Shown here piece after piece: positions 3,295-58,766 of a stretch of 64,000 nt of DNA (position 1 is the first letter of the stretch; each line of letters starts with the position of its first letter). Location: contig JAMXBD010004327.1 of NCBI GenBank assembly GCA_024138025.1, positions 1-64,000 of the forward strand, written 5' to 3'. Below the pieces are notes generated by a model. The model was not told the DNA's origin. It searched no databases and saw nothing but the letters and a program-made list of their open reading frames with translations. The stretch is from Combretum micranthum. Lineage: Eukaryota > Streptophyta > Magnoliopsida > Myrtales > Combretaceae. The translations under genes were made by a program, and so were the position numbers.

Positions 3295-3299
3295 CCTAT

Positions 3300-9600: not shown

Positions 9601-10085
9601 TTGCCTATTATGAGTACTTTTGCGTAAGGAATATCTCACTAAGCTAGTCATGCTTATACTCCTACAGACTTTTGACATTGCAGGATTATCCTTTTTGCAC
9701 CCGAGACCATCCTGACCACCCGGGTAGAATCTTTATTTTGAGAAGCTTTTGGAGGAATTCTGTTTTGAAGTCATAGAGTAGATTTCTTCTAAAATCTTCT
9801 AGCTTTAGTTATTTTATCTTTAGTAGAACCATGTTGTTATGGAAATTATCGGGGGAATGCCCCTTAGAAGTTGTAAGACTTTATGTTTCTATGAAATATA
9901 TTTAGTGTTATCCTATATGTTCCGCTGCCAATATCTTAAAATGTATTACTTTACTGGTCTCCCTTTGATGTGAATGTATGCCTTGTACCGATATGGAAAC
10001 TTTTGAGTAACTGGGATAATCATTCTTAAGTTTTAATATTGAGTACGATGGGCTGTCACGTTTAGGGTACCTATTGGGGCATGAC
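6687..10085 (+). mobile_element. A: solo LTR of the long TGTAAACCCC family, 5' end deleted
   Basis: Plus-oriented and parallel to B from 11037 on. It lacks about 280 bp at its start and ends GGGGCATGACA inside the copia-1 integrase frame. Visible parts: TATA box 7107-7115; donor TTAG|GTAAAA at 7293; a cluster of three hairpins (7592-7698); the 8761-8803 dyad; first micro-exon 8904-8970 (acceptor TTTAG, frame ending FPEDYFDS-stop, ATG 8 nt before donor GTGAGT at 8971); paired-change hairpin 9520-9543; second micro-exon 9684-9723 (TTGCAG| ... CGG|GTAGAA); and the GGGGGAATGCCCC stem near 9850. No coding domain is present. Confidence 0.85.
9520..9543 (+). other. paired-change hairpin in A
   Basis: Stem CATACGA/TCGTATG around a loop containing ACCGGA. 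It directly follows the TAAATCC part of the conserved block. Same site as 55619-55642, 13449-13475, 19013-19037, 25274-25298, 37147-37171, 38571-38595, 44811-44835, 46539-46565, 50081-50105 and about 53334-53347. Confidence 0.6.
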
Positions 10086-18463: not shown

Positions 18464-21400
18464 TGTCACGCCCCAAAGGGTATCCTAAACGCGTCAGTCC
18501 GTCACACTCGATATTTAAACTCAAGTGAGATAACCTTAGTTTCTCCATGAGTTTGAACATCACGTGTCAGGCTCACGTTCAACATATAGGGAACCATACT
18601 TAGCTTCGAAATAGTTTAAGGAGACATACATAACAACAAGAATGTGTCATAATAGTTATATTTAGAATTAATCTATTACATAATCTAAGGGGTATACCCC
18701 CATCAAAATACTAAGAGTTCTTAAGCTCTCAAAAGTCTCTTATAACATCCATCAAATACCAATTTAGGAGAGTCTATGCCTACATCTAGGTCCTGGCTTC
18801 ATCAAAAAGCTCCTTAGAGTCCAAAAGCTGTACCTGAAGAAAGTATTTTCTTAGAGATAGCCATAAACATTCATACTGCAACAGGAAACTATCGGGGTAT
18901 AAGCTTACAACCTTAGTGAGATTTATTTCAAAATATTTAGTACTCAACAACAGTATATAACAAACAAGTTATTAACATCCATATGAAATGCATAAGCAAA
19001 TGAGCATACAAGCATATGACTTTCCGGTAGCTATATGTGAATGGATTTACGCCTTCCATTTGGGGTTGGGGCGGTCCATAAGTCATGTAAACATAATTCC
19101 AATCTTGAGTGGGGTGGTCTATAAGTCATGCAACCATAAATCCCGATCTCTTCCTCTTAGTATGCAACCTCTATTGTTTTATTGTGGTAGTTTTAAGTGC
19201 CTACCCTACTTCCGTTAACGTAAGCGATCTTGCATCCTTAATGTTAACACAGGCCCCCTCGCCTCCGCTAATGTACTTTTGTCCCACCAAAGGTATATTA
19301 GCTAATGTAATGTGACTCACTACGTGATATGCATGTACAGTTTATTCATATAATCATGGCATGTTAATTATGTAAGTTAAGTGTGATCATAGAGAATTTC
19401 AGACAATCCAAGTCTATACTAGCTCATACAATGATTTTTCAACAAGTCTCATCTCGATATACTTATCATTCATTCAACCAAGATTAGATCACAACTTATC
19501 ATAATTTTATCTTTTCCTAATTCTAATGCCACTACGATTACAAGCACATACATGAGCACAACTATTTAAGAAATGAACTCACTTTGCCATGGCGTGGAAA
19601 TTTACTCAATCGTAATTGTCCTTGGAAAGGTCTTGTTCATCTCTCAAGTTTCCTAATCAAAATAAATAATGCTAATGAGTATTTTTTTTAAGTTTGAATG
19701 AACCTATAAATTCTATTCTATCAAGTTCATCAAAATTCGTCTAAGAGGAAATTTTAACTTAAAACGACCCTAACTTAGTAATTTTAACTCGGAATTTCAC
19801 ATATTATATACCGATTTCTACCTATTCAACGAAAGCTATCTATTTCTAGAGTTATTTTCAACAAATGTGGTCGGTTGATCTATGAACAGTAGGGTACAAA
19901 ATACTACATGAATTTCCCGTTCCACAATTTATCTTCTAACCTCAAAACAAACATCATATTTAAGGCTTTGATAGATACTTAGCTATCATTATATCTTGTA
20001 AGACTCTATTATATACATATATAACTCAATACCATGCATGATTCATGAATGTTGGGAATTTCTAATTTCTCATGTACTTAGATACTATCAAATAAGAAGT
20101 ATGTGACCTTACTTTTCTAACTTTGTTTCTATAAGTGCATTATGTATATATGCAATACGTACAAGCTATTATCATGAAGGTCATGGAATGAACTATCTAT
20201 ATGTATATCCTTAATGTTATAGTATCAATAATTCTTTTTGAAAAACTTTTACTTTGCAAAACTTTTGAAATTTACTAGACTTAAGAATGGTGGTTTTCTT
20301 TCTTGAAAAATCACATTTGCTTTCATCAAAACTTAACCTTGATGACCTATATAGCTATCACCTTCATTTTTTAATAAAAACCTTTATTTTGGGGTTATAA
20401 AATAGATGTTTAAATAGGTGGTTTGCCTAAGTACGAATTTTACAAAATTTTAAAGAATGAAAACATTGTTTCACTTATTCTTGGAAACCATTTATTGTTC
20501 TAAGATTATATTTTGATAAACCTCTCTTTTCTTGTCAAAATTGGGTCTTTATTACATGTATCCCCTAGGACTTTCATTTTTCTGTAAAAATTATCATTTT
20601 GGCATTTGGAAATAGGTGTTTAAGTAATGGTTATTTTCAAATCCGAATTTCTGAAAAATTTATTTGAGTTTTTTTTTTTTGTAAAATTCATTTAGTCTTT
20701 CAAAAACTATTTTCTAATCAAACCTACCCATTAAGGCTTCCATTGCTTTAATAAAAATCTTGTTTTGAAGTTGAAAAATGGGTGTTTACATTTGAAGCTT
20801 CTTTTATTACGAATTTAAAACTTGTTTTTGAGATTGAAATATAACTTTTGTAAACTTGCCTTTGTTTTGAAAATATTCCTTAGTAGATCTAAACTTTTCT
20901 CATCAAGATCATTTATTTATGATATCTATTCCCTAAGCTCTTCATTTTAAATGAAAAAAACACATTTTGACGTTGAAAAATAGCTTTTCTAGATATGGTT
21001 CTTTTTTTTATCCGAATTTTCAAAAGTTATTTTTGTTGAAACCAAAATGGATCTTGAGCTTTCTAATACTTTTCTACTATCATCAAGCTATTACAAGTTA
21101 TTTAAGAACATAAAACAAAAGTCTAATGCATGTATGAACTTAAAACAACTAGATCTAGTCTACTATACTAGTTATAAATAGATGAACACTATGATGGTTA
21201 TGTGAATATGAATCGATGATGAACATATGCACAAATCATTAGCAATAACAACATAAATTGAAAATAAAACAAGATAATAGAAAAATAACTCAAATAACAA
21301 GATATAAAACATTGTGATGGCAATGATCTCATGTTCAAGTGTTTCCACATCCCTAGCTTGAAGCTCATGGGGATTTTTGTGTGGAATCACACATGAATGA

Positions 21401-24748: not shown

Positions 24749-27700
24749 TGTCATGCCCCAAAGGATAGTCTAAACGTAACAATTCATCGCAAGCTATATA
24801 AGACTTAGGAATTGCTATCTCAACCATTCCAAAGTCTCGTACCTTTACGACAATAGAATACATGAACCAATGGAGATAAATAGTTTAATTTGACATATTA
24901 TAAGCATAAGGATATAAACCATGAGTCCACATAATTAATTACAAAATTTCTAAGGGCATTCCCCTGCAAAAATAGTATCAAGCTTAACAACAATCTTTTA
25001 CAGTTATCTAATAAATAATAGGGTTTCCTATGGAAGTCTACACAAAACCTAACATAAAATTGTAATGGAAACTCCTACTTCCAGTACCTGCTCGGTAGGA
25101 TGCCTCGACCTTAACCAAATACATGGATACTGCAATAAGAAAAAGCTATGGTGGCGTTAGCTATACTAACTTAGTGAGTAAATACTTCCATAAAGACATT
25201 TGTAACAAATCAATCAATCAATCAAGTTAATTACTTAATTGTATGGAATGCATCAACCACATGAACAAACGATCATATGATCAGCCGGAAATCATATGTG
25301 AATGGATTTACGCTCCCATTTGGAGTTAGCAGATTAACGAATAATGTAGTACTATCGTTGAATTAATAAGCCGTTTATGGATCACCGATAACCAACTTAT
25401 GTCATTTATGGATCACAACAACCAACTCATTTATGTTGTTTATGGATCATGATCAACTAACCTTTAGCCCTTTACGGATCACGGATAACCAACATATGCT
25501 AATGCTCCATCCTCATCATGAAGTGATTATGTCCATATTAATTTATCAAATCGAATAGTCATTTATACCAATTTCTTCGATGATCAACAAACTTTCAGAC
25601 AATCACTCCTACAATAATCTAAACAAACATGAGTTAATCACCCGATTCCGATATTCTTAATACCATTTCGCAACTCAACAATAAACATACATAATCCCCC
25701 ATAATTCCATTATGCGATTCCATTTTTATCTTTTACCTTATGATCTAGTGCAACTATTTGCTACAATCACAAGCAAAAATGAAATTAGGAAGTAATACTC
25801 ACTCGACCATTGGTCACCGGTCTCTTAGTAATGGTAATCCGGAGGTAATGAATCCTCGGGATCCAAGTCACCTATACAAAAGAAATACCCAAATGACTAT
25901 TTCAACTCATAACTAATCCATTTTATTTCATAAAAGCTATTAAGTTCTTAATTCTTGTCATTGGTGGAAATTCCAACTTAAAATGGTCATAACTTGGTCA
26001 TTTTAACTCGGAATTTCACAAATTATATACCGATTCCTATCTACTTTGAAAGATCTATCTAATTCTAGTGTAATATCTCAATTTTGAAAACTTTTAAGTC
26101 TCGAAAATATCCAAACAGATCTGGTCAATAACCGAATTCCCATTTTCGAAATTGTTTTTGTGAGGAATTATGATATTTTTACTATCCATGCCAAATATGC
26201 ATGCAATAATAACAAATCACTACCATTAATGGTATGTTATGAGCTTCCTATATGCATATTCATGATGATATTCTATTACAAAATATTTTTGAAATTTCTA
26301 CTTTACAAGATATCATGAATACTTAACCTAGTAAGTTCAATTTTTTGTGTTATTGACCAACCACACTTGTTTTAGAGATTTTCCTAAATAAAAATTTACT
26401 TCTTCTTGCTAAAATTACTTTTTTATCATATCTATTCCTTATGGTCTTCATTTTTTAACATAAATCCTCATTTTATACCTTGTAAACAAGGGTTTATATA
26501 TTAGCTATTCCTAAATCCAAATTTTGTAAAAATAGTTTTTGAGTGATTTATTTAAGAAAATTTTTTGATACTTTAAAATTCAAGGCGCCATTATTCCTAC
26601 CCCCTAAGGACTTCATTTCTTCAATAAAACTTCCATTTTGAGTTTGAAAAGTAAGTGTTTACATATCCTCTTTTCCTAGTTACGAATTTCATGTAACTAT
26701 CTTAAGATCAAATTTTTCTATCATGTAAAATTTTTTGTTTAACAAATTTCTCTTAGTAGATCTACTATTAACTTACAAAAATCATTTCCTATTGTTACCT
26801 ATTCCATAAGCTCTTCATTTTTCACATAAAAATCATGTTTCGAGTTGAAAAGTAGGTTTTCAAAATACAACTCATTTTCCATCCGAATTTACAAAAGTTT
26901 GTTTTTATAAAACCAAATTTATTCTTGAGCTTTTTGGCTCATCTTCATAAATATCTTGTCCTTTAGAAGTAATAAAACATTCATTTACATAAGACAAGAT
27001 ATTTATGACCATTCACTCATCCTACACATAATAAATGCATGAGATCTACAATATCATGTGAGAGAATAAATGTTTAAGAGCTAGATCTAAGTATAATAGT
27101 CATGTTAAATGTATGAAATGGGATATACTACTTATGACCGTGATGTAGTAACAAGATTCTTACATGAACATATATTATGATTATGAGAAAAACACAAGCT
27201 TTAATCACAAGATCCACAACTTGTGATGGCTTGATCATCATGTTCTAGTGGTTTCATGTCCCTAGCATGAAGCTCATAGGGATTTTTATGAATCCACAGA
27301 TGCATAATCTAGCCATTACATGTTTTTGTGGTAGTAAAGTTTAGATCTATACCTATTTAGGCTTGTGGAACGAGAGGAGTTGAAAATAAAAATGTGTGAG
27401 AGTGTGTGTGTGTGTGTAAAGCTCACGGCAATAAGAGAGAAAGAGGGAGAGTGTTTTGCAAATTTTCCAAGAGTGAAAATGAAGAAAGAAAGAAATGAAA
27501 CGGTAAAAGTATAAAGAAGTTTATATAGGGAATTGGATTAGGGTTTTGTATGATTAATATAAAAAAAAAAGAAGACAAATAAATGAGAGGGAAAGGGGGG
27601 GGGGGGGGGGGGGAATATGCGCCGGCCAAGGAGAGAGAGAAGGAGAGGAAATAATTTTTGTACAATTTTTCAAGTTAAAAGTGTAATAAAATGTGTTGGA

Positions 27701-34163: not shown

Positions 34164-37100
34164 TGTAAACCCCCAAATTTTTTGGAATCAGTTTAACTTA
34201 AAACCCTAATCCGAAAGTCAACCGAAACCTTAAAATCAATAAAACCCTAGTTAGACGTAATAGCTTAAGTCCAGCAATCCCGAATAAGCAACTCAGAGAA
34301 AGTAAGTAAGAGTTTAGTATGTAAAATAGTGCGTAATTACATAAAGAAGCTTAAAAATATGAGATTAGTAAAACCGCGAATCATTTTGAACCCGAACGGA
34401 CACGGTTCTTGAAAAACTTGTTCCTGGTCTCGGAATAGTAAAAAAATTCCGAATATACCATTAGACTCATAAAAATATAAAGTTTTCAAAAATATCAGTT
34501 TTATAGTTTTTCGATAAGTAAAAATATCAGATATCGCAATTATACAGGTATTTTCTTACTACCGGTACTTTATTGGTTATATCTACTTTACATTACATTA
34601 TTTACTATTATTCTACACTATTATTTTCTCTCTACTTTTTCTTACACCTACTCTTATAACACCATAACCTATAACCTTTACTTTTTACCTTTCCCATAAC
34701 TTTATTTCACATTTACCTTACTTATTACTTCATTTAATCCACAAAAATACAAAATAAAATCTCTCTTCTTCCCTCCATACTACATGGCTGGTGCACCACC
34801 CCCCCAATTCATCTCTCTCAATTTCGTCTCAATTTTCTTTTATTTAAATTACACAAAAATTCACTCCTCATTTCCTATAAATACTCCCCTCATCTTTCAC
34901 TTCTTTCACATAATTACTACTCATAAATTCTCTACAAAAACTCTCTCAAATTCTCCTCTTAAAACTCTCTCCAAATATCCTTCCAAAACCCTCTCCAAAT
35001 AATCTCAAACCAATTTCTACCTGCACAAAACTCATAATCATATAACACTTCAAAAACCTTATTTAGGTAAACTTTTCATTATAATTTTTTCTTCTCATGT
35101 CATGTAACTTTACATGACCATGGTGTGAGTTTTCAAAAACTAAATATTATGAAAGCTACACTATGTTCATGTATTGTTCTTGTTCATGGAAATCTATTTA
35201 TGTTTATATTGTTATTTTGTTCATATTATTGTTATTATATCTAAGTATTATTATGTAATATATATATATATATATATATTCTTTAGAGCATATAAGCTCA
35301 CTTGCAATTTATTTATTTCCATGCAAAGTAATTTATTTATTTCTTTCATTGCAATTTATTTATTTCTTGTCATTTTAATACTAGTCTCTAGTCTTAGACT
35401 TGTCCTCATCAAGTCAAAACAAATCTTTTTTTTTCATTTTATTTTTCTTTTGGGACTAGTCTACTTCTTAGTCCCGGGAGCCTTGAAGAAGCTAAGGCTC
35501 CCAATACTTGACTTTATTTATTATTTATGTTATTTTTGCTTGCTATTATTTCTCATAAATCATGTTCATTAAGATTGTTATCCAAATTTTTCCAAGCTCT
35601 AAAAATATTTGATAAAAATGAGATTTTATCACTTAGAAATGAGTTTATATGAAATATAAAATCTATGGTTTAACAAAAATAAAGTTATACCTTTCCAAGT
35701 TATTAGAAGAACTCACTACAATTTTAGAAGCTACTTTTGTTTTGAAAAGCTCTTTAAATCATTTCTATACCACTTGTCTTTCAAAAAGAAAATGATTTTC
35801 ATACAAAAATGATTTCTATGAAAACATAATATAAAGAAAACCTTACAAGAAAGGAATGAGAGTTTTCAAATTAAGATCTTTTCAAACAAGTGGTCAAAGA
35901 AAAATTGTATAGAAAATAAAAAGGGAAAAATAGCACTAATATAAAGAACTTAGAAAGAAGAAAATTTCTTTTCGAAAAGTTATCTAGGAAAAATAATAAG
36001 GCAAACATAAAGTAACCTTTGGAAACAAAAGAAACAAAATATTCATTTCAAAAGATTTACAAAATGGATTTCTTGTAAACTATAGTTTTCTAAACTTCTA
36101 ATTAACATTGTTTTACTCAAGAAGCATGATTGGACAACAAACACTTGAGTATGAATAAAATATGAGCTAAGTAGCTATGAAAAGAGAATTTTTTAACTAT
36201 ATAGATAACTAAGTATTTATCAAACAAATCTTGAATGATTTAAAGTTTGAAACAAAATTGTTTTTGAGTTAGAAAATTCGTGAAGAATCTGATCACCACT
36301 GTTTTGGGGCCTAAATGGTTTAGTTTGAAAAAAATAGTTTTAGAAATGGATAGATCTTTTTGAGTAGGTAGAAATCGGTATATTATATGCGCAATTCCGA
36401 GTTAAAATGACCAAGTTATGGCCATTTTAAATTGGAATTCTCCTTTATACAAACTTTTAACGTTCTCATGATATTGTTTTGTCAAAATTCAAGAAAATCA
36501 TCAAGAAATACTCATTTTGGGTATTTTCTTTCACTAGGTGATTCCGAGGAAGAATACCTATACCCCGAGGACTATTTCAATTAAGAGGATTGTGTGAGCG
36601 ACTCATCTGTATAGAAGAATTGTCAACATGGCATCGTGAGTTTATTTCCTTAAAATGATTTACTTGTTGTGCTTGTAATCTAGTCGCATTAGAATTAAGA
36701 AAAGACAAATGGATGTATATGTAAGATAATTTGTTGAAAGGATCCTAAGAATATTGAGGCCGGAATTGATTTAATGTTTGTTTTAGTGTAACACTTGATT
36801 TGTATGAGATTCTATTATCACCTTAAATTTAATATTAATGATGTTATGATATCATAAACAAATGGATTCATGTATACCATGAAGTGAGTCACATTGCATT
36901 GGGTTATTATCCTTGGGTGAGAAGGATTGTAGCTCAGGTCGAAGGCAACACTTGGTGGAGTGACCGAAAGCTATTGCTTGGCGACATGAAGGAAATGCTT
37001 GGCAGAAAGTCCGGAATTAAGGCTCAATTCAAATAGACTTAATATGCTTGGTGATATCAATCGAAAGCATAAATCTTTTTAACTAAAACTACTTGTTTTG

Positions 37101-37678
37101 AGGTTAAGTATCACCAAACCCAAATGGAGGGCGTAAATCCATTCAACATATAGTTCCCGGAAAACTATATGCTTTGTTTGCCTATGTGTATGTTGCATCT
37201 CATTTGTCTACTTAAACATCTTGCTTGAATTTCTTTACAAGAAGTTATTTATGGAAATAGTTCTTACTAAGCCTATTAGCTTATACCTTTATAGATATCT
37301 TTTGCTGTTCACTTATTTGTGGTTGAGGCACTGGACTCTGCAGCCAGGTATTTTCCATTTGGGTTAAGGAATTTTCTAAATGAAGTTTAGTGTTTGACAA
37401 GATGTAGAAATATTATTGTAATAGATTTGTGACTGGGGAATGCCCCTAAGTTTTATAAGATTATTGATATGAACAAATGAATATTATGAATCCTCTTTTC
37501 TTATTTTGTTATTATATCTTCTTAAGCTTCATTATTCCATGTATGGTCCTTTAAAATTGTGAGAGCACGCCTTACACTTAATATCAAAACTTCTGGGAAT
37601 GGCTAAGGTAGTCATACTTAAGCTTTAATGTTGAGTGTGGCGGACTGTTACGTTTAGGGTATCTCTTGGGGCATGACA
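34164..37678 (+). mobile_element. F: solo LTR of the long TGTAAACCCC family, nested in E
   Basis: 3515 bp, TGTAAACCCC...GGGGCATGACA, TSD GAAAT (34159-34163) against TAAAT (37679-37683). Parts: TATA 34876-34884; donor TTTAG|GTAAAC at 35067; hairpin cluster 35397-35502; dyad 36395-36437; first micro-exon 36538-36634 (acceptor CACTAG, frame GDSEEEYLYPEDYFN-stop, ATGGCATC then GTGAGT); hairpin 37147-37171; second micro-exon 37308-37347, whose acceptor is GCTG instead of GCAG and whose frame has a stop; GGGGAATGCCCCT stem near 37436. Confidence 0.92.
35397..35502 (+). other. cluster of three adjacent hairpins in F
   Basis: GACTTG/CAAGTC (35397-35415), GGGACTA/TAGTCCC (35452-35475) and GGGAGCCTT/AAGGCTCCC (35476-35502, nine pairs). 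Homologous clusters occur at 7592-7698 (A) and 11861-11980 (B), just inside the first intron-like stretch. Confidence 0.55.
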
Positions 37679-39443
37679 TAAATAATGTAAATTTCACAAA
37701 AAAATTTCTGAAATGCAGGTTTTAACTATTGATCAGATCTGATCCGAGCATTCCGAGACCTAAACATTTTCAAAACTTAAGAATAACATCATAAATAGAT
37801 AGATATTTCGAAGTAGATAGAAATCGATAGCTTATTTGTGAAATTCCCATTTAAAATGACCAAGTTATCGCCTTTTTAAGTTGGAGTTTTCATCTACTAC
37901 GGAAATTACGAACTTAAGAGTTTTATTTAACAAGCTGGAATTAGTTATGGTATGAAATACTCATTTGGATATTTCTTTTGTTTAAGTGATTTTGAATCGG
38001 GGGAAAATTTGTGTTTCTGGATCACTACCATTAGAGACTAGTGTCCATGGCCGAGTGAGTTCACTATCTTTAAATTATATACTCATGATTGTGCTTGTAA
38101 TGATAGTGGCATTAGATATAGGGCAAGATAAAACTGGAATGTGCATGTGAAATTCTATTTGATTGAATCGATGATAAGAATGTCAAAATGGAATTGTTGT
38201 AAATATTTGTATGATTTAGTATAGAATTGAAGTGTCTGCAATATCTATGATTGCCTATAAATCGTTAATTAATATGCCATGATTTTATAATCAAATTGAC
38301 CATGCATACCATATGTTGAGTTACATTGCATTCGTTATTATACCTTTATGGGAAGAAGGCATAATAGCTGGGCAATGAGGAGCCTGTAAACTTGAATGTT
38401 GGCGTAATTGGTGGAATTGAAATGGTAGTGGTGTAGGCACTTGTATCAATTATAAAATTGTGAGTGGGTGGGCACCTGAATCACCCACAATATAAATGAG
38501 AAAAATTGAAATCTATGGTCGTATGGACCTTAAACACCTAACTTCGAATGGAGGGCGTAAATCTATTCAACATAAGACTCCCAGAAAGTCTTATGTATTA
38601 TATGCTTACGTGTATGGTTGTCTTATATAACTTGCTTGCCTTATTAATTGATGAAGCATTTAATTTTGGAAGTGAAAAGCACTAAGCTTGCGTAGCTTAT
38701 ACCCTAATAGTTTCTTTCTGATGTAGTTCCCGTACATATGGCTACGTCCCCAAACTTGGCCTAATCAGGTAATGCGATGGTAGGAGTGTTTTCCCATTAG
38801 AGGTTTATGATTAGTTTTGTATAGCTTTTCATAGTGCACCTTAAACGATCGGGTTTTACTTAAAAGGTATTACCTACACTTTTGTTTAGCAGGGGAATGC
38901 CTCTTAGTATTTTGTAACTGATCCTGAGATATCTGTGGTTTATGTTTTTATGCTTACCTTATCAAATTGAACTATCTATCTCTAACTATTTATGTATTTT
39001 ATTATTGTAAGGGAACACCTTGCATACTAACACAAGACTTTTGAATGACCATAGTAGTGATTCTTAACTCTCATTTAGTATACAGTGGACTGTTACGTTT
39101 AGGATACCCTTTGGGGCATGAGAGGCAACCAACTTATCTAAGTCGGCAGCCTATCCAAGTACGCTGACGGCTTAAAGGTCGGCATACGACCAATTTCCCT
39201 AATTTGTACAATTTTCTCCCGAAGCTCCAAGCTGGTGTTTAGGCCTTCATCCTTTGTATTTAGGCTGGCGGCTTAGAATTATAGGCTGGCGGCTTATATG
39301 CTGGCCTACATCAAAATCATCCAATCATTCGTGTACATCTTTCTCGCGTCGAAATTCATCTGTTTCAAGACAAAAATATCCTTTTAAACAACTATTTATT
39401 ACATGAGTACCCCTCGCTATGAAATATTTATTTGTATATTACA

Positions 39444-44281: not shown

Positions 44282-45825
44282 TGTCACACCCCAAGAGGTA
44301 CCTTAAACGTAACAGTCCACCGCACTTAATATTAAAGCTTAAGTATGACAACCTTAATCATTCCCAGAAGTTTTGATATTAAGTGTAAGGCGTACTCTCA
44401 CAAATTTAGAGGACCATACATGGAATTATGAAGCTTAAGAAGATATAATAACAAATTAACAAAAGAGGATTCATAATATATTCATTTATTCATAACAATA
44501 GTGTTACAAATCTTAGGGGTATTCCTCAGCCACAAATAACTATAATCTATTACAAGAATATTTCTATGAAGTCTATATCTTATCCAACATTAAATTTCAC
44601 CTAGAAATTCCTTAACCAAAAAGGAAAATACTTGGCCGCAGGGTCCACATGGCCTCAACCACAAATAGGTGAACTGCAAAAAATATCTATAGGTATAAGC
44701 TAATAGGCTTAGTGAGAGCTATTTCCATAAATAAACTTCTTGTGTAATGGAATTCAAACAAGTTATTTAAGCAGACAAATGAAATGCAACATACATATGG
44801 GCAAACAAGGCATATAGTTTTCCGGGAACTATATGTTGAATGGATTTATGCCCTCCATTCGGGGTATGGTGATATGTAACCTAAAAACAAGTAGTTTTAG
44901 TTAAAAATTATGCTTCCGATCAATACCACAAAGAATATTAAGTCTACTTGAATCGAGCCATGCTTCTGGACTTCCGCCAAGCATTTAATTCCATGTCGCC
45001 AAACAATCGCTTTCAATCATAACCGCCAAGTGTTGCTTTCGACCTGAGCTACCATCCTTCTCACCCAAGGATAATAACCTAATGCAATGTGACTCACTTC
45101 ATGATATGTATGAATCAATTTATTTATAATATCATAGCATCATTATTATCAAATTTAAGGTGATCATAGAATGTCATACAAATCAAGTGCTATACTAAAA
45201 TAAACATTTAATCAATTCCAGCCTCGATAATCTTAGGGTCCTTTCAAAAAATTTTTCACATACATATCAATTTTTCTTGTCTTAATTCTAGTGTGATTAA
45301 ACTACAAATACAATCATGTAAAGCAATTTAAGGAAATAAACTCATGATGCCATGTCGACACTTCTCTAGACGGATGAGTCCTTCACACACTCCTCTTAGT
45401 CGAAATATGAGTATCCATCCTTAGAATCACCTAGTCAAGGAAAATACCCAAAGTGAGTATTTCTTGATGACTTTCTTGAATTTTGACAAAACAATGACAT
45501 AAGAACGTCAAAGTTCGCATAAGAGAGGATTCCAATTTAAAATGGCCCTAACTTGGCCATTTTAACTCGGAATTGCGCATATAATATACCGATTTCCACC
45601 TACTCGAAAAGACCTATCCATTTCTAAAACTATTTTTATCAAACTAGATTATTTAGGGTCTGAAACAGTGGTGATCAGATTCACCACGAATTTTCCCTAA
45701 CCCAAAAGCGATTTGTTTCAAACATTTAAACCATTTAAAATTTGCTTTGATAAATACTTAGTTATCTATATAGTTGAAAAATTCCTTTTTCATAGATATA
45801 TAGCTCATATTCTTCCATGCTCAAG
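44282..45825 (-). mobile_element. H: left part of a long-family LTR
   Basis: Starts TGTCACACCCC; close relative of F in the opposite orientation. Contains second micro-exon 44631-44673 (TTGCAG|TTCACC...; frame has a stop), paired-change hairpin 44811-44835, first micro-exon about 45346-45430 (acceptor GACTAG, frame GDSKDGYSYFD-stop, ATGGCATC; the donor GT has become AT) and dyad 45530-45572. Cut by I at 45825 within CTCAAG. Confidence 0.85.
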
Positions 45826-45989: not shown

Positions 45990-46898
45990 TGTCATGCCCC
46001 GGAGGGTAGCCTAAATGTGGCAGTCCGCTGCATATAATATTAAAGCTAATGAATGACAACCTTAGTCATGCAGGAGCTTCGATATCACATGCAAGGCGTG
46101 CTTTCAAGATAGTAGGAGACTCACAGGGGTATTAAATTTAAGTAGATAATAAAAGCAAGCAAGAACTTATATAAATAAACATAAGATTTTCATAATAATA
46201 TCCTTACATCATCTTAGGGGCATTCCCCCACTTTAGAAGTTTTTCAACAAAATAATAGCTACTATAATACAAGCTTACTATAGAGATTTTCCTAAAAGCC
46301 TATGTTCAAAACTTAAATACATAAAGCTTCTCCCAAAAACTCCTAGTAGCTTAAACTCGTACCAGGCATTCGGGGCTTCTTGGGGTCAACCAAAGGTAAT
46401 CGTACTATAACAAAAAGCTATAAGGGTATAAGCAAATCTAGCTTAGTGAGATAATTCCATCTACAAGACATTTTCATATAGCAAACAAGTGCTTCATCAA
46501 GCATATAAGAATGCACCAATCATATGAACAAACAAAATACACATGATTAACCGGAAATCAAGTGTAACATGGATTTTACGCTCTCCATGTTGAGGGTTGG
46601 GAGGTTACAGGCCCATACGACCATCAATATTTGCAGATTTACCGGCTCCTGCTCGCCCTGTAGACTTTCTGGCTCCTACTAGCGTATGTAGAATTTCTGG
46701 CTCCTATCAGCCACCACTACGATTTCCTCATTTCCCCATACGAAGAGTAGTAGTGAAACAAATGTGACTTACAAGTATGATATGCATGAATTGATTTCAA
46801 TATATTTTTAACCAAACAATGTTTAGTTCATGTTGAAGGCGATCAACACAATTTTCATCATATCAATACAAGAATCATAACTTATTTATCAAACCTAC
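45990..46898 (-). mobile_element. J: left part of a long-family LTR
   Basis: Starts TGTCATGCCCC; close relative of B in reverse. Holds a GGGGCATTCCCCC stem near 46217, second micro-exon 46363-46404 (TTATAG| ... CCTG|GTACGA) and hairpin 46539-46565. Interrupted by X at 46898. Confidence 0.85.
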
Positions 46899-49424: not shown

Positions 49425-52400
49425 TGTCACGCCCCGAGGGGTATCCTAAACGTGGCAGTCTGCCGTACACAATATTAAAGCCTAAGAATGACCACCTCAG
49501 TCACTCGAAGGCTTCCATACTATGTACAAGGCGTCTAACACATGGAGGAGACTCAGCGGAGTAATTGTCACGCGCCGTAGGGTATTCTAAACGTAACAGC
49601 CCGCTACATACTAAGTAAGACTCTAGAGTTCCCTACCCTGGGCCTTCGGAAGTCTTAAGTAGATGTAAAGCGTTCCTCTACGACAATAGAATACTTCAAC
49701 AAATGGAGTTAAACAGTTTAACGAGCCATTCATTAGCCATAGATAATAATCAAAACGCATAATTTAAAGTTTACAAGATCTAAGGGGCATTCCCCCGCAA
49801 AAGAATAACAGTCTATTTAGTCATCCAGATCTTTAGTTTCCAATGGAAGTCTATACAAAAAGGAATGGATTAAACTTCTATGGGAAACTCCTATCTCCGG
49901 TACCTGCGCTGTGGCTTCTCGGCCTAAGCCATGTAAAATCATGCTGCAAAAGATAAAAACTATGGGGGCGTAAGCTAACTAGCTTAGTGAGTAATACTTC
50001 CACAACGCAATTAAACACATTTCATTCAAACAAGTAGTTATTCAGGCAAGTGTATGCATCAAACAAATGTGATCAACAAACATATGACCGTCCGGAAATC
50101 ATATGTGGATGGACTTGCGCCCTCCATCCCGGGTTAGCAGATTAACGAATCCTGCGGTACGACGCCGTTTGAGCTCACGGTCAACTAACAAACTTCGTTT
50201 TATGGATCACGATTAACCAACAATTTCGTTTTATGGATCACGATTAACCAACAAATGTGAATGCTCCAACCCCATCGTGACATGGATGAATTCAATTTAA
50301 AGTTGGAGTCGAATATTCATTAATTCAATTCTTTTAAGTGACCAACAAGTATTCACAGACATTCATCGTAAAATACTAGTAAAACAGTCAATATCTTAAC
50401 ACCCGGTTTCGATATTCCTTAAGCTCCATTTCATGTATTCAATAGTAAACAACATAAGCAATTCCCATATACCCCAGCATGCATATACAATTTCTTTATC
50501 TTTGCCTACACCACTAGTGCCACTACATTAAATCACATTCATTAATTGAGAGTAGAAGTAAACTCACTCGGCCATTGGACACCAACTTCCTAATAATAGT
50601 AGTCGGGAGGTAGAGTGTTGTCTTGCTCGGGATCACCTACCAAGCAAGAATAATCCTAATGAGATTCTCTTCATGTAACTAATTCAAACTATACATCTAG
50701 ACTAGTTGAATTCGGATTTCTCGCTATTTGGAAGTCCCGACTTAAAACGGCCATATCTTGGTCATTTTAATTCGGAATTTCGCAAATTTTATATCGATCT
50801 CTATCTACTTCGAAAGATCTATCCATTCCTAATATTAAATTCAAGTTTTGAAAATAGTAAGATCACGGAACAGTGGGATCAGTTCTGTTCCGCAATTGAT
50901 CCAATTTCGAAAATGTGTTTTGCTTTTGATAAGAAATGTTCCTAGTTGGTGATTCATGCATGAATGATATAAGAATGATCTACTAATGTGTATGCCATGT
51001 AATGAACTCAATATGTGCATGGTCATGATAATTTTTGTGGTAATAAACCCTTATGAACTCCTAAGTGTTAGAAAATCTTTCAAAGGTTATTTCTAGTAGA
51101 CTATTTTTCCACATTATACTCCTTAGGGTTTCTTTGGCTTTTAGTCTTGTAGTCCACTTGTTTTCTATCTAAAAATAAATCCCCAAAGTCTATAATAGTC
51201 ATGGCTCCATTCATGCATAAAAATCCACATTTTTCATTTGGTAAACATGTTTTTAAATAAGCTTCTTGTAAAAATCCGAATTTTCCAAATTTCATTTCCT
51301 TGCATTTTTCTTAAGAAATCTTGCCTAATACATTAAAAAGTGAAGCTCCAATATATATTGTCTAAGGACCTCATTTAGCTTATAAAATATCCAATTTAGA
51401 CCTAAATACTAAGTGTTCTTGTGGGCATGAACCTAAGTTACGAATTTTAACCATTGATCAACATACCAATATCTTTCCTCTTAACTCCACTACTTGTTTT
51501 ATATTCCTATGATGCCTAAACTCATCCAAGCTTATAAAAATCATTCCTTCAATATTCCTATCATACATACCCTTCATTTTTCTTGTGAAATATGAGTTTA
51601 AAGTTGATTTTGGGGGTCTTTAAGGTAGGGTTTCCATTTCATCCGAATTTTCAACTTTTCATATTTGACAAAGTCCTTCCTTTTTCAATGTTCTTGCCTT
51701 CTATATGTGGAGATCTACTATCTAACATCTCTATACATGAACAAGACTTCATTCTTATGATCATCAAAGCATATAAAGCAAAATGAACCTATGATCATGC
51801 ATGTACATGAAGTTGTGAGTGTCTAAACCTTAGATCTACTACATATGATATATAAAGCATGGATCTCATGGCATGAACAACAATATATGTGCAAGATCAC
51901 TACTTTACATGCATGAACAAGATGAGATCTTAACAAAAACACATCTAAACATTAGATCCATGTCTTGTGATGGCTTGACATTCTTGTTCATGTGTTTCCA
52001 TGTCCCTAGCATTAGCTCATTGGGATTTAATGAGGAAACACACAAGATATGTCTTGCCATTACAAGAACTAGGAAGAACAAGACTTGAATCAACATACCA
52101 AAGGAGTCTTGAGATGGAAATGGAGAAGAAACAAAGTTGAAATTGTAAGGGAATGGGGAGGGAGTGCTCGGCAATGAAGAAGGGAGAAGAGGGTTTTGAT
52201 CCTTTTTCAAAATTAAAATGAAAGAAATGAAGAGAGAGAGAGAACATTTAGTATATATATCAAGTAATTTAGGGTTTAGCTTTACTAAATGGAGTAAAAA
52301 TAATTAAATGAGAGGGGAAATTGAGGAGGGCGCCGCCATTAAGGAGTTGTGTGTGTGAGGTTTTGAAAAATTGAATTTGTAATTTAGTAAATGATAATGT

Positions 52401-55167
52401 AATAAATGTGATAATTGATTTAGAGACAAAATTTCTTGGAAAAGAAAATTGAAATGAGTAGTTGTAAGGATGTAAAATAGGGTATGGGTAGTGTAGAGGT
52501 TGTACTTGTGAATATAGACAAGACATCTACTTTACCGTTGTACCGAAAACACGGGAAAAGCTATAACTGTAATCTTTATAGCTCGGAAAATTATAAAATT
52601 GATATTTTTGGAATCCTTATAAAATTACGGTTCTAATGAATATTCCGGAATTTTTCTGAATCCGTGGTCCGGGGCACGCTTTTCCGTAATTGGGCTCGGA
52701 AGGCCCGGAATTGAAAAATTCCCGAATTTAAAACTTTCAAAGGTTTGAAATGTACTTTGGAACAATAATTCAAATTCATTTACTTCATAATATTTATTTT
52801 ACTATGAAACCGAAGGAAACCGGATTTAGGGTTCCTAGGCTTCATTCACTAAACTCAACCTGATCGGATTAGGGTTTCGCTTCCAATTCCCGGGGTTTCC
52901 TAACTACTGAGAATTACCGGGTTTACAGTAATACATTTTACGTTGATATAGCTTGAGTAACAATGTAAAGGAAATACAAATTTACTATACTTCAGATACA
53001 AATCACTATACTTCATAATACAAATCATTAAACTTCAATTACACTTCATCAAAAGATTCTACTACGTAAAACTATTACAAGGCAAATAATAAAACTAGCT
53101 GGTAACTTCAACATTCGTGTTCTTTGCCGAAATCCCGGAGTCATTCCCAGCTCCAACCAATTCTGTCCCCATTTTGCATTCTTGAAATAACCTGCTCATT
53201 TAAACAACTATTGGGGTATAAGCTACACTAGCTTAGTGAGAATTCCCTTAATTCCGTACCATAACAAACAAGTTAAAATCAGTCATATGCTATGCATGAA
53301 CAAACACGTGAGCAAGCAATTATGTATGGGTATTCGGAACCCACACACAGAACGGATTTACGCCCTCCGTATCTTGGGTTAGGGATGGTATTGAAGTCTA
53401 CACGACTGCTGCTAGTCCCCAAGCCCTCGGCTCATAGCATTCGCCTCGGCTAGGCTCACACATGGAATGCATCCCCGATGCGCCTTAGTTTCCTATGAAT
53501 GAGCTCTGATCCCGGGTCTCATTATCCAAACAAGTCCTCGGACCATACCGATCGATCTGCGTAGGAGTAGCACGCTACCAAATGCAATATGTCTGATGCG
53601 ATGCATGATCAATTTACTTTTTGCTTAGGTCAAAATATTTATATATTCTTTAGAGTGACCAGCCAATATCATACACATAACAGAAATAATATGAACAGTG
53701 CAGTTATCCAATCAAATCGTGGTTTCGATATGCTTTAGTATTCTTTGACATACATTCATCACAGCCTCATCATATATCCCATCCCCATTCATATCGATTT
53801 TTATTATGTTCTTATAATCTAATGCAACTAACTACAAGCACAATCAAGGTAACAAAACAAGGAGAAAACTCACTCGGCCATTGGATCGCCGGTCTTTTAG
53901 TAATAATAATTCGGTGGCAGGGAATCGTCGATCTCGGGATCTCCTAAAAAGGAAGAAATACTCTAATAAGTATTTCATCACTTAACTAATCCAAACTATC
54001 TCATTCAAACCATCAAATTCGCAATTCGCGTCCTAAGCGGAAATTCCAACTTAAAACGGTCATAACTTGGTCATTTTAACTTGGAATCTCGCAAATTATA
54101 TATCGATTTCTATCTACTTCAAAAGATCTATCTAATTATAATATTATTTTCAAGTTTTGAAAACCTTGAAGCTTCGAAAAGTTAGGATCAGATTAGGACA
54201 GCAACAATTTCAATTTCCGAAAAATAGTTTCGTAAATGCTTGAAATGTTTCTACTTGTCAATTCAATTATACATGTAATATGAATGATTTCCTAACATGA
54301 ATGACCTGAGATGAGCTTAATGATTTTTGCAACAAGGAAACTTTATAACTTTTTATTTTGCAAGACCATAATAACAACTATTTATGAAAAGTCTAGTTTT
54401 CTAACTTTGAGCATTTCCATTTGTTTTGGAGTTATTACTTAAGAAAATATAATTATTTTTGTTAAAATTGAGTCTTCATCATATATATTACTTATGACCT
54501 TTATTTCTACATAAAAATTTCCATTTTACACTTTGTAAACATGTTTTTAAGTGGGGTTGATTCCAAAATCCGAATTTTACAAAAATTGGTTTTTGAGTGA
54601 TACCTTCAAGTAAAAATCATTTGATATTTAGAAAATTAAGGCTCAATCATACATAACCATTAAGGAACTCATTCTTACACAAAAATTTGCATTTTACACT
54701 TTGCAAATATGTTTTCCAATATGATTTACTAAAAAATCCGAATTTTAGAAAATCCACTTTTTGAATGATTCACTTGGGAAAAACTTGTTTAATGCATTAA
54801 AATTTAAGACTTTACTACATCTATTGTCTAAGGACTTCATTTAACACATAAAACTTGTAATTTGAGCTCAAATACTAAGTGATTACATATGCATCATCTC
54901 ATATTACGAATTTAACAATTTGATCACTAACTCAAAATTTTCCATTTTAATTCCATTACTTGTTTTACACATTACTCATGACTAAACTCATTTTAACTTG
55001 TAGAAATTATTCCTTAAAGATACCTATTGCCTATACCCTTCATTTTTCACATAAAACATGAGTTTTGGAGTTGATAATTGGGTTTTAAAAATTGGTCTTT
55101 GTTGGGATCCGAATTTAGAAAATTTATTTTTGGTCATAACTTTTGATAAAATCTATCTAAGCTTATG
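49425..55167 (-). mobile_element. K: long-family LTR, interrupted by L and by gypsy-2
   Basis: K proper is 49425-49565 and 52933-55167. Starts TGTCACGCCCC; its other end is beyond gypsy-2. Parts: first micro-exon 53874-53943 (acceptor TTTTTAG, frame GDPEIDDSLPPNYYY-stop, ATGGCCGA then GTGAGT); dyad 54044-54086; hairpin 53334-53347 and flank; second acceptor GAGCAG at 53192 with an open frame of 34 codons from the ATG, but without a clear donor at the usual distance. Confidence 0.85.
49566..52927 (-). mobile_element. L: complete solo LTR of the long TGTAAACCCC family
   Basis: 3362 bp, TGTCACGCGCC...CGGGTTTACA, perfect TSD GTAAT (49561-49565 and 52928-52932). Minus-strand parts: TATATATAC box 52251-52261; donor TTTG|GTATGT at 52098; conserved block 51965-52070; dyad 50735-50777; first micro-exon 50568-50636 (acceptor GGTAG, frame GDPEQDNTLPPDYYY-stop, ATGGCCGA then GTGAGT); hairpin 50081-50105; second micro-exon 49904-49943 (TTTTGCAG| ... 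GCGCAG|GTACCG), open in frame; GGGGCATTCCCCC stem near 49785. Confidence 0.95.
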
Positions 55168-55448
55168 TGTCACGCCCTGAGGGTACCCTAGTAGTAATAA
55201 ACAAGTCACACTTGAATATTATCACTATATTACCTTCAGGGAATGACAGGTTTTCAAAACAACAGGATCTTTTAAGTTGCTTGATAAGAAATAACAAATA
55301 TATGAGAGAAATGATTTAGTGAATAACTATTACAACTCATTACAAACCATATAGTTCCTTTGTAACATACAACTAAATAATCTACTCTATTAGTACATAT
55401 CCATCAAACTAAAATAGATCTGTAGACTTCTAGCTTCAAAGCCCTTAC

Positions 55449-55494
55449 CGGTGCCATATTCCTAGATGTAACTAACCAGGGTCGTAAAGTGAAC
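55449..55494 (-). other. candidate second micro-exon in gypsy-2 LTR
   Basis: 46 nt between acceptor TCTTTTCAG and donor CACCG|GTAAGG. Joined to the ATG of the first micro-exon it stays open and ends on a codon boundary. Equivalent 40-43 nt segments occur in A, B, C, D, E, F, H, J and L at the same place. Confidence 0.6.
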
Positions 55495-55618
55495 CTGAAA
55501 AGACTGTAGGAGTATGAGCGAAACCACAGCTCAGTGAATAACCAGACATACCATACATCACACAAATCATTAACAAATCATATGCAATGCAAGCACTCAA
55601 TCGTATGCACGGATACAA

Positions 55619-55642
55619 GTTTGGATGATCTAGAATCCAAAC
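55619..55642 (-). other. hairpin with palindromic loop, gypsy-2 LTR
   Basis: Stem GTTTGGAT/ATCCAAAC (8 pairs, no mismatch) around loop GATCTAGA, next to the conserved GATTTACGCCCTC. The position matches hairpins with quite different stems in eleven LTR copies. Confidence 0.65.
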
Positions 55643-56246
55643 AGGAAAAAGATTTACGCCCTCTTTTTAATGGGTTGAAGAACAAAACTCAATGACCCAC
55701 CTGCCCAGGAGAGACTAAGTACACAGGAGAATCAACGATTTCTCGTTTTAATGTTATCACTTTGAATATAGTGGCTTCCACAAACCATCTCCTGCAATCC
55801 CCTTAGAAACTCCCTAAGTATTAATCATTTCAAAGCGATTCTACGGGCGACGTTCTTCGGTGCCTTTTAGTTCCTCATAGGACCGCCAGACCAAAGAGAA
55901 CCTTGGAAGACTCACACATTGGATCAACCAAGCAAAAACAGAGATCCGAAATATTAATACGTAGCAGGCTGTCACAACCATATATGCAATAATGCAATTC
56001 GTGCAATGCATGTCCATATTATTTGTTAAGTCAAAATTCTTAATCAAATTCGAGGTGACCATACATTACACACAATCATCATATACTATTACACACACCA
56101 ACCATTGGTTATCACTTGTATAAAGATATTTTAGCAATCATACAATCAGACCATATCATACTTTCACAAACACTCATTTGTTTATCTTGCATTACATATT
56201 CGACTATTTACAATCACAACCAGTACAATATGACTGAATTACTCAC

Positions 56247-56307
56247 CTGCTCATACCGACTCAGTCGTAGTAGTCCACTGGTAGATCTTCTAATGAGTCA
56301 AATTCAC
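56247..56307 (-). other. candidate first micro-exon in gypsy-2 LTR
   Basis: 61 nt between acceptor TTTAAATAG and donor GAGCAG|GTGAGTAA (full consensus). Contains the frame GEFDSLEDLPVDYYD-stop, then ATGAGCAG up to the donor. If joined to the donor at 57317 the frame stays open upstream for about 20 codons without a Met. Confidence 0.65.
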
Positions 56308-58431
56308 CTATTTAAAACAAAATATTCATCAATCGTCTAGCTAAATCTCTATATGTGATTGTGTCCTAGACTCGATATTAATACTTAGTATTGTCGGGTT
56401 TTTCCTATTTCTATCTCACATAATTGTTTGGTTATTTTTAGAAGTCATATAACTCAGGAAATTAACTTTTTAATTTCCATTCTTATATATTTTAACTTTA
56501 AAACAAATATTAGACTAATATATTTATACTCTAAATATGTCCTTATTCTAGGGTTTCAAAAGTTATTAGATATTAATTCTAAATAGATTTAAATACTTGT
56601 GTTATAGTTACTATCTAATACATATTTATATAACAAACACATATACATACTTAGTAGATATTATATATATATATATATTAAATTCGGTTTAGGTCAGAAA
56701 AGCTTTGTTGGAAAAAATTTTAGCTGTAAGCCGGCTCAAGGCCGCCGGCCTAAATCCCCAGGTGCCGGTGTAAAATCATTTTGAAGAGAAAATTTCATAT
56801 GAAAAGCACCGGTGTTGAAGGCCGCTAGCTTTCAACGTACGCCGGCCCTACGCCGTCGGCGTAGATCTCCAGGTAGCCGGCTTACGTCGAATTTTACGTG
56901 AAAATTATTTTACGTAGCCTCTGTTTGAGTGTAAGCCGTCTATACGCCACCGGCCTATCCAAAGCGCCGGCGTACATCGTTTACACTGCCGGCTTGAGGC
57001 AGCGTTACACTGTTCATCATCTTCTCCTGGTTCGATTCTTTTTCATTGATTTTTACACGTTAGAAACTTACTTAAACTACTTCTAAGAGTTTATACATCA
57101 TATATAAGGATATAACAACTTTCAACACGTTTAAACACATAAATATATAGATTTCGATTCTTTGAAACATAAAGCTAGGGTTTTGAATTTTACCTTGTTG
57201 GAGCTCTTTGAGTGTAATCCGAAGCTTGTGTTTGTGTTTAATATGTTCCTAAGATGATTTTAAGTCAGATGCAATTCATATAATTGAACGAAAATCCTTG
57301 GAATTATGTCAACTTACCTTTGAGCTCGTTTTTGAGGGTTTTAAGCTTTGTTCTTCCTTTGATTCGAACTCAATAGTTTTGGTTGATTTGTTTTCTGTTT
57401 TGGGTTGGTTTTGATTGCTCTTTGGGAGTGGATTCGTGCTAAGAAGTTTGAGTAGTAATGATATTTGTTTGTTCACTCTTTAATGCATTTGTTTACATAT
57501 ATATAGAAGGAGAGAAAGAAGGATGTCATGGCTGCTTCTCCCCCGATTTTCCTTCCGGTTTGATCTCATTTTGGCTGTTATTTTCACTTCATTAATTGCC
57601 AATTTGAGCTGTCAAATGATGATTGGTCCTTGGGTCACTTTGTTTGACAATTTGGGTGAATTATTGTAGAATTTCGGCTCCTTCTCTTCTCCAAATTCCT
57701 CCCACCGAAATCAGCCGCATGATATATATATTTATATATTAGTTTATTTATTTAGTTAAATTTTGAGTTAATTATCGGTTATACGGGTATAGATTAGCTA
57801 ATATTTGGAAGTTTTTGTACAAAAATATGCTTATAAATTTATACAAAACATTTAGATTTTCAAATAATGCAAATTTAGGTTATAAATATACGTAGTTAAT
57901 TATTCATATATTTTTATCTCCCGCGATTTGGATTTCTTAAGCTTATCGGGTCAATTTTTGTTTCAGGCTCCGATAGCTTAAGAAAACTCGGTTTAGAACA
58001 AAGCGTGATCCAATTATTTATTTGAAGTTTAGATTTTGAGTTATTTGTCAGTTTATATTTTCGTTGTGTATTTAAAATCTTGATGTTCATTTTTGGATCA
58101 TCGTTTTCTAGTCATAAGCATTTATGATCATTTATACAGTATTGGGCTTCATACAGAAATTAAACTATGTTTATATCTCTAGTTTTGAATCATTATCGAA
58201 ATCAAAACAATCATTTATCTTTATATTCACATTTTCTATTTAAATCTATTGTATACTAGGTTTCGGGTCTAGATATTAGATCATATCTTGAATTAGTTAT
58301 TCAAGACAAGATTTCGTTTTCGGTATTAACTAGGGTTAAAGAACTCTTTATTCGTTCCTAAATCTTTCATTCTATCCAAAAATCTAAATATTATCCTATT
58401 ATTAGACTTCATCAGAATCTAAATCTATTAT

Positions 58432-58698
58432 CTAGTTTATATAATCTATTATGAAGTCGGGTACTAATGTGAAAAATTCCCGGGGTTTACATTTCCCCCC
58501 CTTAAAATAAGCTTTGTCCTCAAAGCTTGAATGCGTACCTGAGTTTTCAAACAAATGAGGATAGCTTTTCTTGATCTCCTCTTCTAATTCCCATGTAATC
58601 TCTTCTGTCTGTGGATCCCATAATACTTTGATAGTGGATTTCTTTATTCCTGAGAACTTGCACTTTCCGGTCCAAAATCTTAACTGGATGCTTTTCAT
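58432..58698 (-). pseudogene. gypsy-2 pol, chromodomain-like C-terminus
   Basis: Carries STIKVLWDPQTEEITWELE and a SYPHLFENSG end: the C-terminal chromodomain-like module of Del/Tekay-type integrases, which in the family binds histone marks of silent chromatin. The frame continues through the polypurine tract (as FKGGK) and about 20 codons into the LTR before its stop at 58432. It is out of frame with the integrase body to its right, so one or more frameshifts lie at 58699-58770. Confidence 0.82.
58492..58507 (-). other. gypsy-2 polypurine tract
   Basis: Minus strand TTTTAAGGGGGGGAAA immediately before the LTR start TGTAAACCCC. Confidence 0.88.
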
Positions 58699-58766
58699 AA
58701 GTCAAATTCTCCTTCAAATCAATTGGTTCTATTCCACTATCTTATCTGGATCCGGTACATACTTTC

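What the first reader, a model, noticed from the sequence alone, without database searches (positions are those of the whole stretch)
55449..57317. A conserved spliced-leader cassette (two micro-exons) lies inside the long LTRs
Seen: gypsy-2's LTR reads donor CAAAG|GTAAGT (57317), acceptor TTTAAATAG, a 61-nt segment, donor AG|GTGAGTAA, acceptor TTTTCAG, a 46-nt segment, donor CCG|GTAAGG. Diverged copies keep the same series at the same places. First segment: A 8904-8970, B 12918-12981, C 19583-19652, D 25803-25871, E 37987-38054, F 36538-36634, K 53874-53943, L 50568-50636. Second segment: A 9684-9723, B 13611-13652, C 18834-18875, D 25088-25129, E 38727-38768, F 37308-37347, H 44631-44673, J 46363-46404, L 49904-49943. 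Segment lengths stay within 61-97 and 40-46 nt while the stretches between them vary by hundreds of bases. Inference: the LTR carries a multi-exon leader that is spliced before gag, which would be an unusual design for a chromovirus LTR.
Basis: partly seen in the sequence, partly recalled or inferred. Interest (0 to 1): 0.88.

Follow-up and report, generated by a model that had tools for sequence, protein, structure and literature searches.

The report
Retrotransposon gene beginning inside its LTR
The two tiny exon-like pieces in the long terminal repeats of these plant jumping genes are most likely the first coding exons, start codon included, of an extra gene spliced across the repeat's edge; this needs RNA proof but would explain how a known puzzling extra protein begins.

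Summary
The segments are real and recur at matching places in eleven diverged LTR copies (ten per segment). Splicing is the best reading, but one site and the purpose are wrong. The second acceptor is probably not TTGCAG but an AG 9-16 nt upstream; the bases between encode -LLQ- in 5 of 8 copies tested. With it, an ATG 5 or 8 nt before the first segment's donor reads through segment two (e.g. MADFYLLQHDFIWLRPRQATAQ) and, in the three families seen past the 5' LTR (G2, L, F), enters in phase a long extra ORF just after the primer-binding site. So the LTR appears to hold the start codon and two coding mini-exons of the Tekay-type 5' extra ORF ('ORF0'); splicing would remove the LTR end and primer-binding site. 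Upstream of that ATG the first segment carries a codon-conserved tail ending in a stop (..LPPDYYY*), which fits a spliced pol C-terminus in the 3' LTR: G2, L and G1 have a same-phase donor at the end of pol; F does not. No RNA was available, two junction searches found no intronless copy, and exons are no more conserved in nucleotides than introns. ORF0 itself is in print; its spliced LTR start I did not find in print.

The parts
55168..58491 (-). 3' LTR of the gypsy-2 (G2) element, TGTAAACCCC...GGGCGTGACA
   Evidence: polypurine tract AAGGGGGGG then TGTAAACCCC at 58491; end shared with other copies, followed by TGGTATCAGAGC in 5' LTR copies
57496..57505 (-). TATA-like box of the LTR promoter
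   Evidence: sequence; function inferred
57318..57480 (-). exon 0, non-coding leader (5' end approximate, inferred from the TATA-like box), donor CTCAAAG|GTAAGT
   Evidence: donor region kept in the 8 copies
56247..56307 (-). exon 1 of G2 (61 nt): acceptor AAATAG|, tail EFDSLEDLPVDYYD*, then ATG AGC AG|GTGAGT
56261..56307 (-). coding tail ending in stop TGA (the first two bases would complete a Gly codon), proposed last codons of spliced pol
   Evidence: codon test 0 of 1000 shuffles for this segment over 10 copies; phase 1 matches the pol-end donor
56247..56254 (-). start codon of the extra ORF and first 8 nt (phase 2 at the donor)
55449..55503 (-). exon 2 of G2 with the upstream acceptor CTACAG| (55 nt), peptide ...SLFRFTLRPWLVTSRNMAP
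   Evidence: in frame with exon 1 and with exon 3 in L037
63673..63999 (-). 3' part of the extra ORF (ORF0) of the G2 element, upstream of gag
   Evidence: its start lies beyond the window on C4327 (L037)
58539..58545 (-). pol end AACTCAG|GTACGC, donor-like, phase 1
   Evidence: 12 of 12 further family copies
12918..12981 (+). LTR copy B exon 1 (LTR 10761-14045)
13598..13652 (+). LTR copy B exon 2 with upstream acceptor (last codon is a stop)
8904..8970 (+). LTR copy A exon 1
9668..9723 (+). LTR copy A exon 2 with upstream acceptor (length out of phase)
19583..19652 (-). LTR copy C exon 1
18834..18888 (-). LTR copy C exon 2 with upstream acceptor
25803..25871 (-). LTR copy D exon 1
25088..25145 (-). 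LTR copy D exon 2 with upstream acceptor
37987..38054 (+). LTR copy E exon 1 (LTR split by the insertion of LTR F)
38711..38768 (+). LTR copy E exon 2 with upstream acceptor (decayed, one stop)
36538..36635 (+). LTR copy F exon 1 (LTR 34164-37678)
37295..37347 (+). LTR copy F exon 2 with upstream acceptor (53 nt here; 55 nt in 26 of 30 relatives)
44631..44686 (-). LTR copy H exon 2 with upstream acceptor
45287..45484 (-).
46363..46417 (-). LTR copy J exon 2 with upstream acceptor
53874..53943 (-). LTR copy K exon 1
50568..50636 (-). LTR copy L exon 1
49904..49959 (-). LTR copy L exon 2 with upstream acceptor (56 nt here; 58 nt in 25 of 30 copies)

Best explanation
The cassette is the 5' end of a spliced gene. 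Transcription starts at the LTR promoter; exon 0 (no ATG) is joined to exon 1, whose last 5-8 nt begin with the start codon, then to exon 2 (55 or 58 nt when intact, acceptor ..TATAG|), then across the 3' end of the LTR and the primer-binding site to exon 3, which opens straight into a long extra ORF (ORF0 / 5' aORF) upstream of gag. The spliced RNA lacks the primer-binding site, so it would serve translation only, while unspliced RNA serves as the genome. Shown: the sites, phases, reading frames and codon-type conservation. Inferred: that splicing happens, promoter and transcript ends, division of labour of the RNAs. A second, less certain part: in the 3' LTR the same exon 1 supplies the last codons of pol (..G-DPE..LPPDYYY*) by splicing from a donor just before the polypurine tract.
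For: With the upstream acceptor the exon 1 ATG reads through exon 2 without stop in A, C, D, F, L and G2 (read); B has a stop as last codon and E one stop: 6 of 8 window copies with both exons. ATG piece plus exon 2 is 63 or 66 nt in 25 of 30 L copies, 26 of 30 F copies (lengths) and 7 of 8 G2 copies (L030 has a deletion), and exon 3 is phase 0 in each family. The exon-3 acceptor follows the primer-binding site in 12 of 12 copies examined (6 G2, 4 L, 2 F); exon 3 stays open for 314 and 280 aa in L062 and L055 and up to 162 aa in G2 although it does not begin with ATG. The first 160 codons of exon 3, one copy per family, are homologous (aa identity 0.44 L-F, 0.37 L-G2, 0.32 F-G2; scores 352, 172, 132 against shuffled maxima 45-50) with most change at third codon positions. 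Codon tests: exon 2 0 of 1000 column shuffles (8 copies), exon 1 tail 0 of 1000 (10 copies). Pol-end donor, phase 1: G2 12 of 12 and L 10 of 10 copies fetched, out of 40 best hits listed for each, plus L100; also G1 (by eye) and the foreign contig L001.
Against: No transcript was seen. Genome searches for L-family exon2|exon3 and exon1|exon2 junctions (up to 3 mismatches) gave 0 matches, while a contiguous exon 2 string gave 2081. Exons are not more conserved than introns in nucleotides, within or between families; F exon 1 is more diverged than all 751 other windows of its alignment. Exon 2 is out of phase with exon 3 in window copies A, F and L and in 5 of 30 L copies, L055 among them. ORF0 exon 3 is open for only 8-88 aa in 7 of 12 copies. 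Pol tail: F-family pol ends (0 of 2: L098, L099) and L002, L004, L005 lack a phase-1 AG|GTA donor; L003 has a donor in phase 0.
Confidence: 0.8

Rival explanations
1. One reading: a non-coding multi-exon leader, spliced before gag, with the second acceptor at TTGCAG.
For: The foreign plant contig L005 has similar exon-like sites in its LTR (donor near 2527, segment about 2792-2897, acceptor near 3575) but only about 200 nt between primer-binding site and gag, so there the leader may be non-coding (by eye).
Confidence: 0.1
2. No splicing now: the motifs are relics kept by descent in dead copies, and ORF0 starts at an internal ATG.
For: No RNA evidence; many copies are decayed; within-family divergence shows no dip at exons.
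Against: L and F exon 3 proteins align over 158 of 160 codons, that is, almost up to the acceptor and upstream of the first internal ATG; intact exon lengths step by 3 nt (55/58; ATG 5/8 nt before the donor).
Confidence: 0.1
3. The exon 1 tail (..LPPDYYY*) is an upstream ORF in the leader that controls ORF0 translation.
For: It ends shortly before the ORF0 ATG in the same exon; the stop is kept as TAG, TAA or TGA.
Against: Exon 0, counted from the assumed start downstream of the TATA-like box, has no ATG in G2, F or B; a pol-end donor in the matching phase exists in G2, L and G1.
Confidence: 0.2
4. Captured host-gene exons carried by the LTR.
For: Small exons with canonical sites.
Against: The frame continues into the element's own ORF0; same layout in several diverged families. 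No search for a host gene was made.
Confidence: 0.02

Closest known systems
5' aORF / ORF0 of Tekay (Del) chromoviruses: sunflower Tekay group 2, rice Retrosat2/RIRE3/RIRE8, maize and sorghum Tekay
   Same: Extra ORF between 5' LTR and gag-pol; Retrosat2 LTRs exceed 3.2 kb with ends TGTCACACCC...GGGCGTGACA (PMC3485330, PMC11728184: abstracts and passages seen)
   Different: The passages seen describe ORF0 as an ordinary ORF; 'splic' occurs 0 times in the main text of PMC11728184 and once, in a reference title, in PMC3485330. Here start codon and first two coding exons lie in the LTR. [quoted passage not shown] PMC11728184 reports a 5' aORF in sunflower (500 of 523 elements).
Spliced plant retrotransposons: BARE1 (spliced Gag RNA), Ogre, EVD, Bagy-2
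   Same: Splicing separates kinds of translated and genomic RNA (PMC3735527 abstract; PMC6317226, PMC7730604, PMC7264820 passages)
   Different: Ogre's intron lies between gag-pro and RT (PMC6317226 passage); the positions in the others were not given in what I saw, and none of these passages places coding exons in the LTR
Retroviral 5' splice donor upstream of gag and spliced accessory genes (recalled)
   Same: Spliced RNA loses part of the leader
   Different: Here the start codon lies upstream, in the LTR, and the primer-binding site is in the intron

Membership tests
Tekay/Del chromovirus | Ty3/gypsy gag-pol order with RT/RNase H and integrase | tested here: met
   Pfam zf-CCHC, RT_RNaseH, rve in that order in G2 (rve below its cut-off); integrase homologs in plants
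Tekay/Del chromovirus | C-terminal chromodomain | tested here: inconclusive
   G2 58474-58788 aligns with proteins carrying PF24626/PF22938 C-terminal domains; no direct chromodomain score on G2 (frame broken)
Tekay/Del chromovirus | PBS TGGTATCAGAGC after the LTR, polypurine tract, long LTR (feature recalled) | tested here: met
Tekay/Del chromovirus | placement by RT phylogeny | not tested
   no tree built; clade name rests on structure and on papers
ORF0 / 5' aORF | extra sense ORF between 5' LTR and gag | tested here: met
   L037, L062, L055
ORF0 / 5' aORF | sequence homology to published ORF0 proteins | not testable with these tools
   published sequences not at hand; one search found no protein at E <= 1e-3 among 1170 candidates, no Pfam family above its cut-off
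Spliced retrotransposon | junctions seen in RNA | not testable with these tools
   no RNA data; the two genome junction searches that were answered found nothing

The most novel reading that the evidence does not exclude
One LTR exon does two coding jobs. In the 3' LTR it is the last exon of gag-pol, spliced from a donor before the polypurine tract and ending ..LPPDYYY-stop; in the 5' LTR the same exon, a few bases after that stop, carries the start codon of ORF0. The LTR thus encodes the end of one protein and the beginning of another, and both splices strip reverse-transcription signals (polypurine tract, primer-binding site) from the coding mRNAs.
Probability: 0.45. Interest if true: 0.82.

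Novelty: new variant of a known kind. Interest (0 to 1): 0.62.

Why it matters
If true it would explain how ORF0 of abundant plant chromoviruses starts, would give their long LTRs a coding role, and would suggest how they separate translated from packaged RNA. It would also mean that ORF-based annotation misses the N-terminus of ORF0 and perhaps the C-terminus of pol. It can be tested with long-read RNA data.

Tried and rejected
Tried without result: Rfam at gathering scores and tRNA scans of the window (0 hits); plasmid collection; viral contigs for integrase relatives (none confirmed); ORF0 protein search and Pfam. Junction searches answered: exon2|exon3 and exon1|exon2 with the upstream acceptor, both 0.

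Rejected or ranked low: captured host gene; chance motifs; the exon 1 tail as a plain upstream ORF. Exon 2 used 8 copies, with F and L represented by genome copies L074 and L052 because the window's own are decayed; G2 and H were left out. In one search the F-family exon 1 end was off by one; one search replaces its F tally. In one search G2's exon 1 end was off by one; its G2 row is void.

Full report
1. What is there. The window lies in a 1.86-Gb genome and holds many nested LTR retrotransposon remains. G2 is a gypsy element on the minus strand: gag zinc knuckle at 62.5-62.0 kb, RNase H and integrase at 60.4-59.0 kb, polypurine tract and 3' LTR at 58491-55168; its 5' LTR lies just outside the window (L032, L037). 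Copies B and F are LTRs beginning TGTAAACCCC and ending GGGGCGTGACA and GGGGCATGACA; E is an LTR into which F inserted.

2. The segments look coding. In segment 1, frame 2 ends with a recurring tail and stop: VEDQDLLFPEDYFDS*, EGGTEITLPEDYFD*, DLDPEDSLPPDYHY*, DSEEEYLYPEDYFN*, DPEIDDSLPPNYYY*, DPEQDNTLPPDYYY*, EFDSLEDLPVDYYD* (C reads DEQDLSKDNYD*, E is decayed, H is shortened). The stop is TAG, TAA or TGA. Shuffling alignment columns never reached the observed codon score (0 of 1000, 10 copies). Downstream of that stop an ATG stands 8 nt (5 in B) before the donor.

3. The acceptor was probably misplaced. Starting exon 2 at the upstream AG puts ATG and exon 2 in one frame: MANFLLQYECLWLSLRKYFLQ (C), MVDFFLLQYPCIWLRSRHPTEQ (D), MADFYLLQHDFIWLRPRQATAQ (L family), MASYLLQFTYLWLRPRGPCSQ (F family); G2 reads MSSLFRFTLRPWLVTSRNMAP. 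The codon test on exon 2 gave 0 of 1000 (8 copies). AG conservation does not separate the two acceptors; the frame does: F copies open 18 of 30 against 2 of 30, and in L only the upstream acceptor meets exon 3 in the frame of its long ORF. For G2 both acceptors are in frame.

4. Where it leads. In copies that are 5' LTRs (exact primer-binding string: 6 of 8 G2 loci; 5 of 30 L loci, of which L044 was set aside because its string follows a second LTR end; 2 of 30 F loci) an acceptor lies 132-193 nt after the start of the primer-binding site..GTGTGTGCAG|ACTAAT..TTTGATGTAG|GTCTCC (in L055 TTGATGTAG)..TTTTGCATAG|ATTACC, in 12 of 12. Exon 3 opens in phase 0 into an extra ORF, 314 and 280 aa in L062 and L055, up to 162 aa in G2, and is broken within 8-88 aa in 7 of 12. 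The three families' proteins are homologous, match no Pfam family above its cut-off (L062 and G2 pieces) and the L062 piece had no relative in the protein search. gag follows further down.

5. The pol tail. At the end of pol, just before the polypurine tract, the G2 family has AACTCAG|GTACGC (12 of 12 fetched of 40 listed) and the L family GGACAAG|GTACGT (10 of 10 fetched of 40 listed; L100 has a small deletion there), both phase 1, which fits exon 1 (its first two bases complete a Gly codon). G1 and the plant contaminant contig L001 have a donor in the same place and phase. F (0 of 2) and L002, L004, L005 do not; L003 has a donor in phase 0. AGGTA occurs at 0.001 per base here. This is suggestive, not proof.

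6. Results against. Exons do not stand out by nucleotide conservation. Two junction searches found no intronless copy although a contiguous exon 2 string occurs 2081 times. Some copies are out of phase between exon 2 and exon 3 (window A, F, L; 5 of 30 L copies). No RNA was available.

7. Literature. Extra ORFs upstream of gag in this clade are published (PMC3485330; PMC11728184, 500 of 523 sunflower elements; abstracts and passages seen). My eight paper searches and the passages I saw in eight papers (abstract only, 109, 111, 114, 117, 118, 132) showed no report of their start being spliced from LTR exons. The paper on extra ORFs by Steinbauerova et al. is not held, so the point remains open.

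8. Verdict. A spliced, LTR-initiated ORF0 gene (0.80), with a bold extension that exon 1 is shared by pol and ORF0 (0.45).

Noticed in passing
L005 1460-4060: A plant chromovirus-like LTR on a contig deposited as Labilibacter shows a similar exon-like layout (AAAG|GTATGA, a segment ending CTACAAG|GTGAGTTCAC, CTCACTAAGC..TTTTCAG) but no room for ORF0, so leader splicing may be older than ORF0's use of it.
   Followed up: partly
L001-L006: Contigs in bacterial assemblies (Mycobacterium, Acidobacteriota, Streptomyces, Labilibacter, Robertmurraya) encode plant-type chromovirus pol: likely contamination.
   Followed up: no
window 32100-39123: LTR F (34164-37678) is inserted in LTR E; flanks GAAAT/TAAAT look like a decayed target duplication.
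   Followed up: partly
G000:C153:1110832, 1120967, 1131127: L-family exon 2 recurs at about 10.1-kb spacing in one orientation, as expected of tandem elements sharing LTRs.
   Followed up: no
window 921-5400 (-): A second gypsy element (G1) with pol end CTAG|GTAACT and LTR start near 921; about 2 kb of other sequence lies between its integrase and its pol end.
   Followed up: partly
L062 3250-3655; L101: ORF0 of the L family has a long acidic, proline-rich later half; L101 shows a basic stretch (RPARKRRM) near its end.
   Followed up: no
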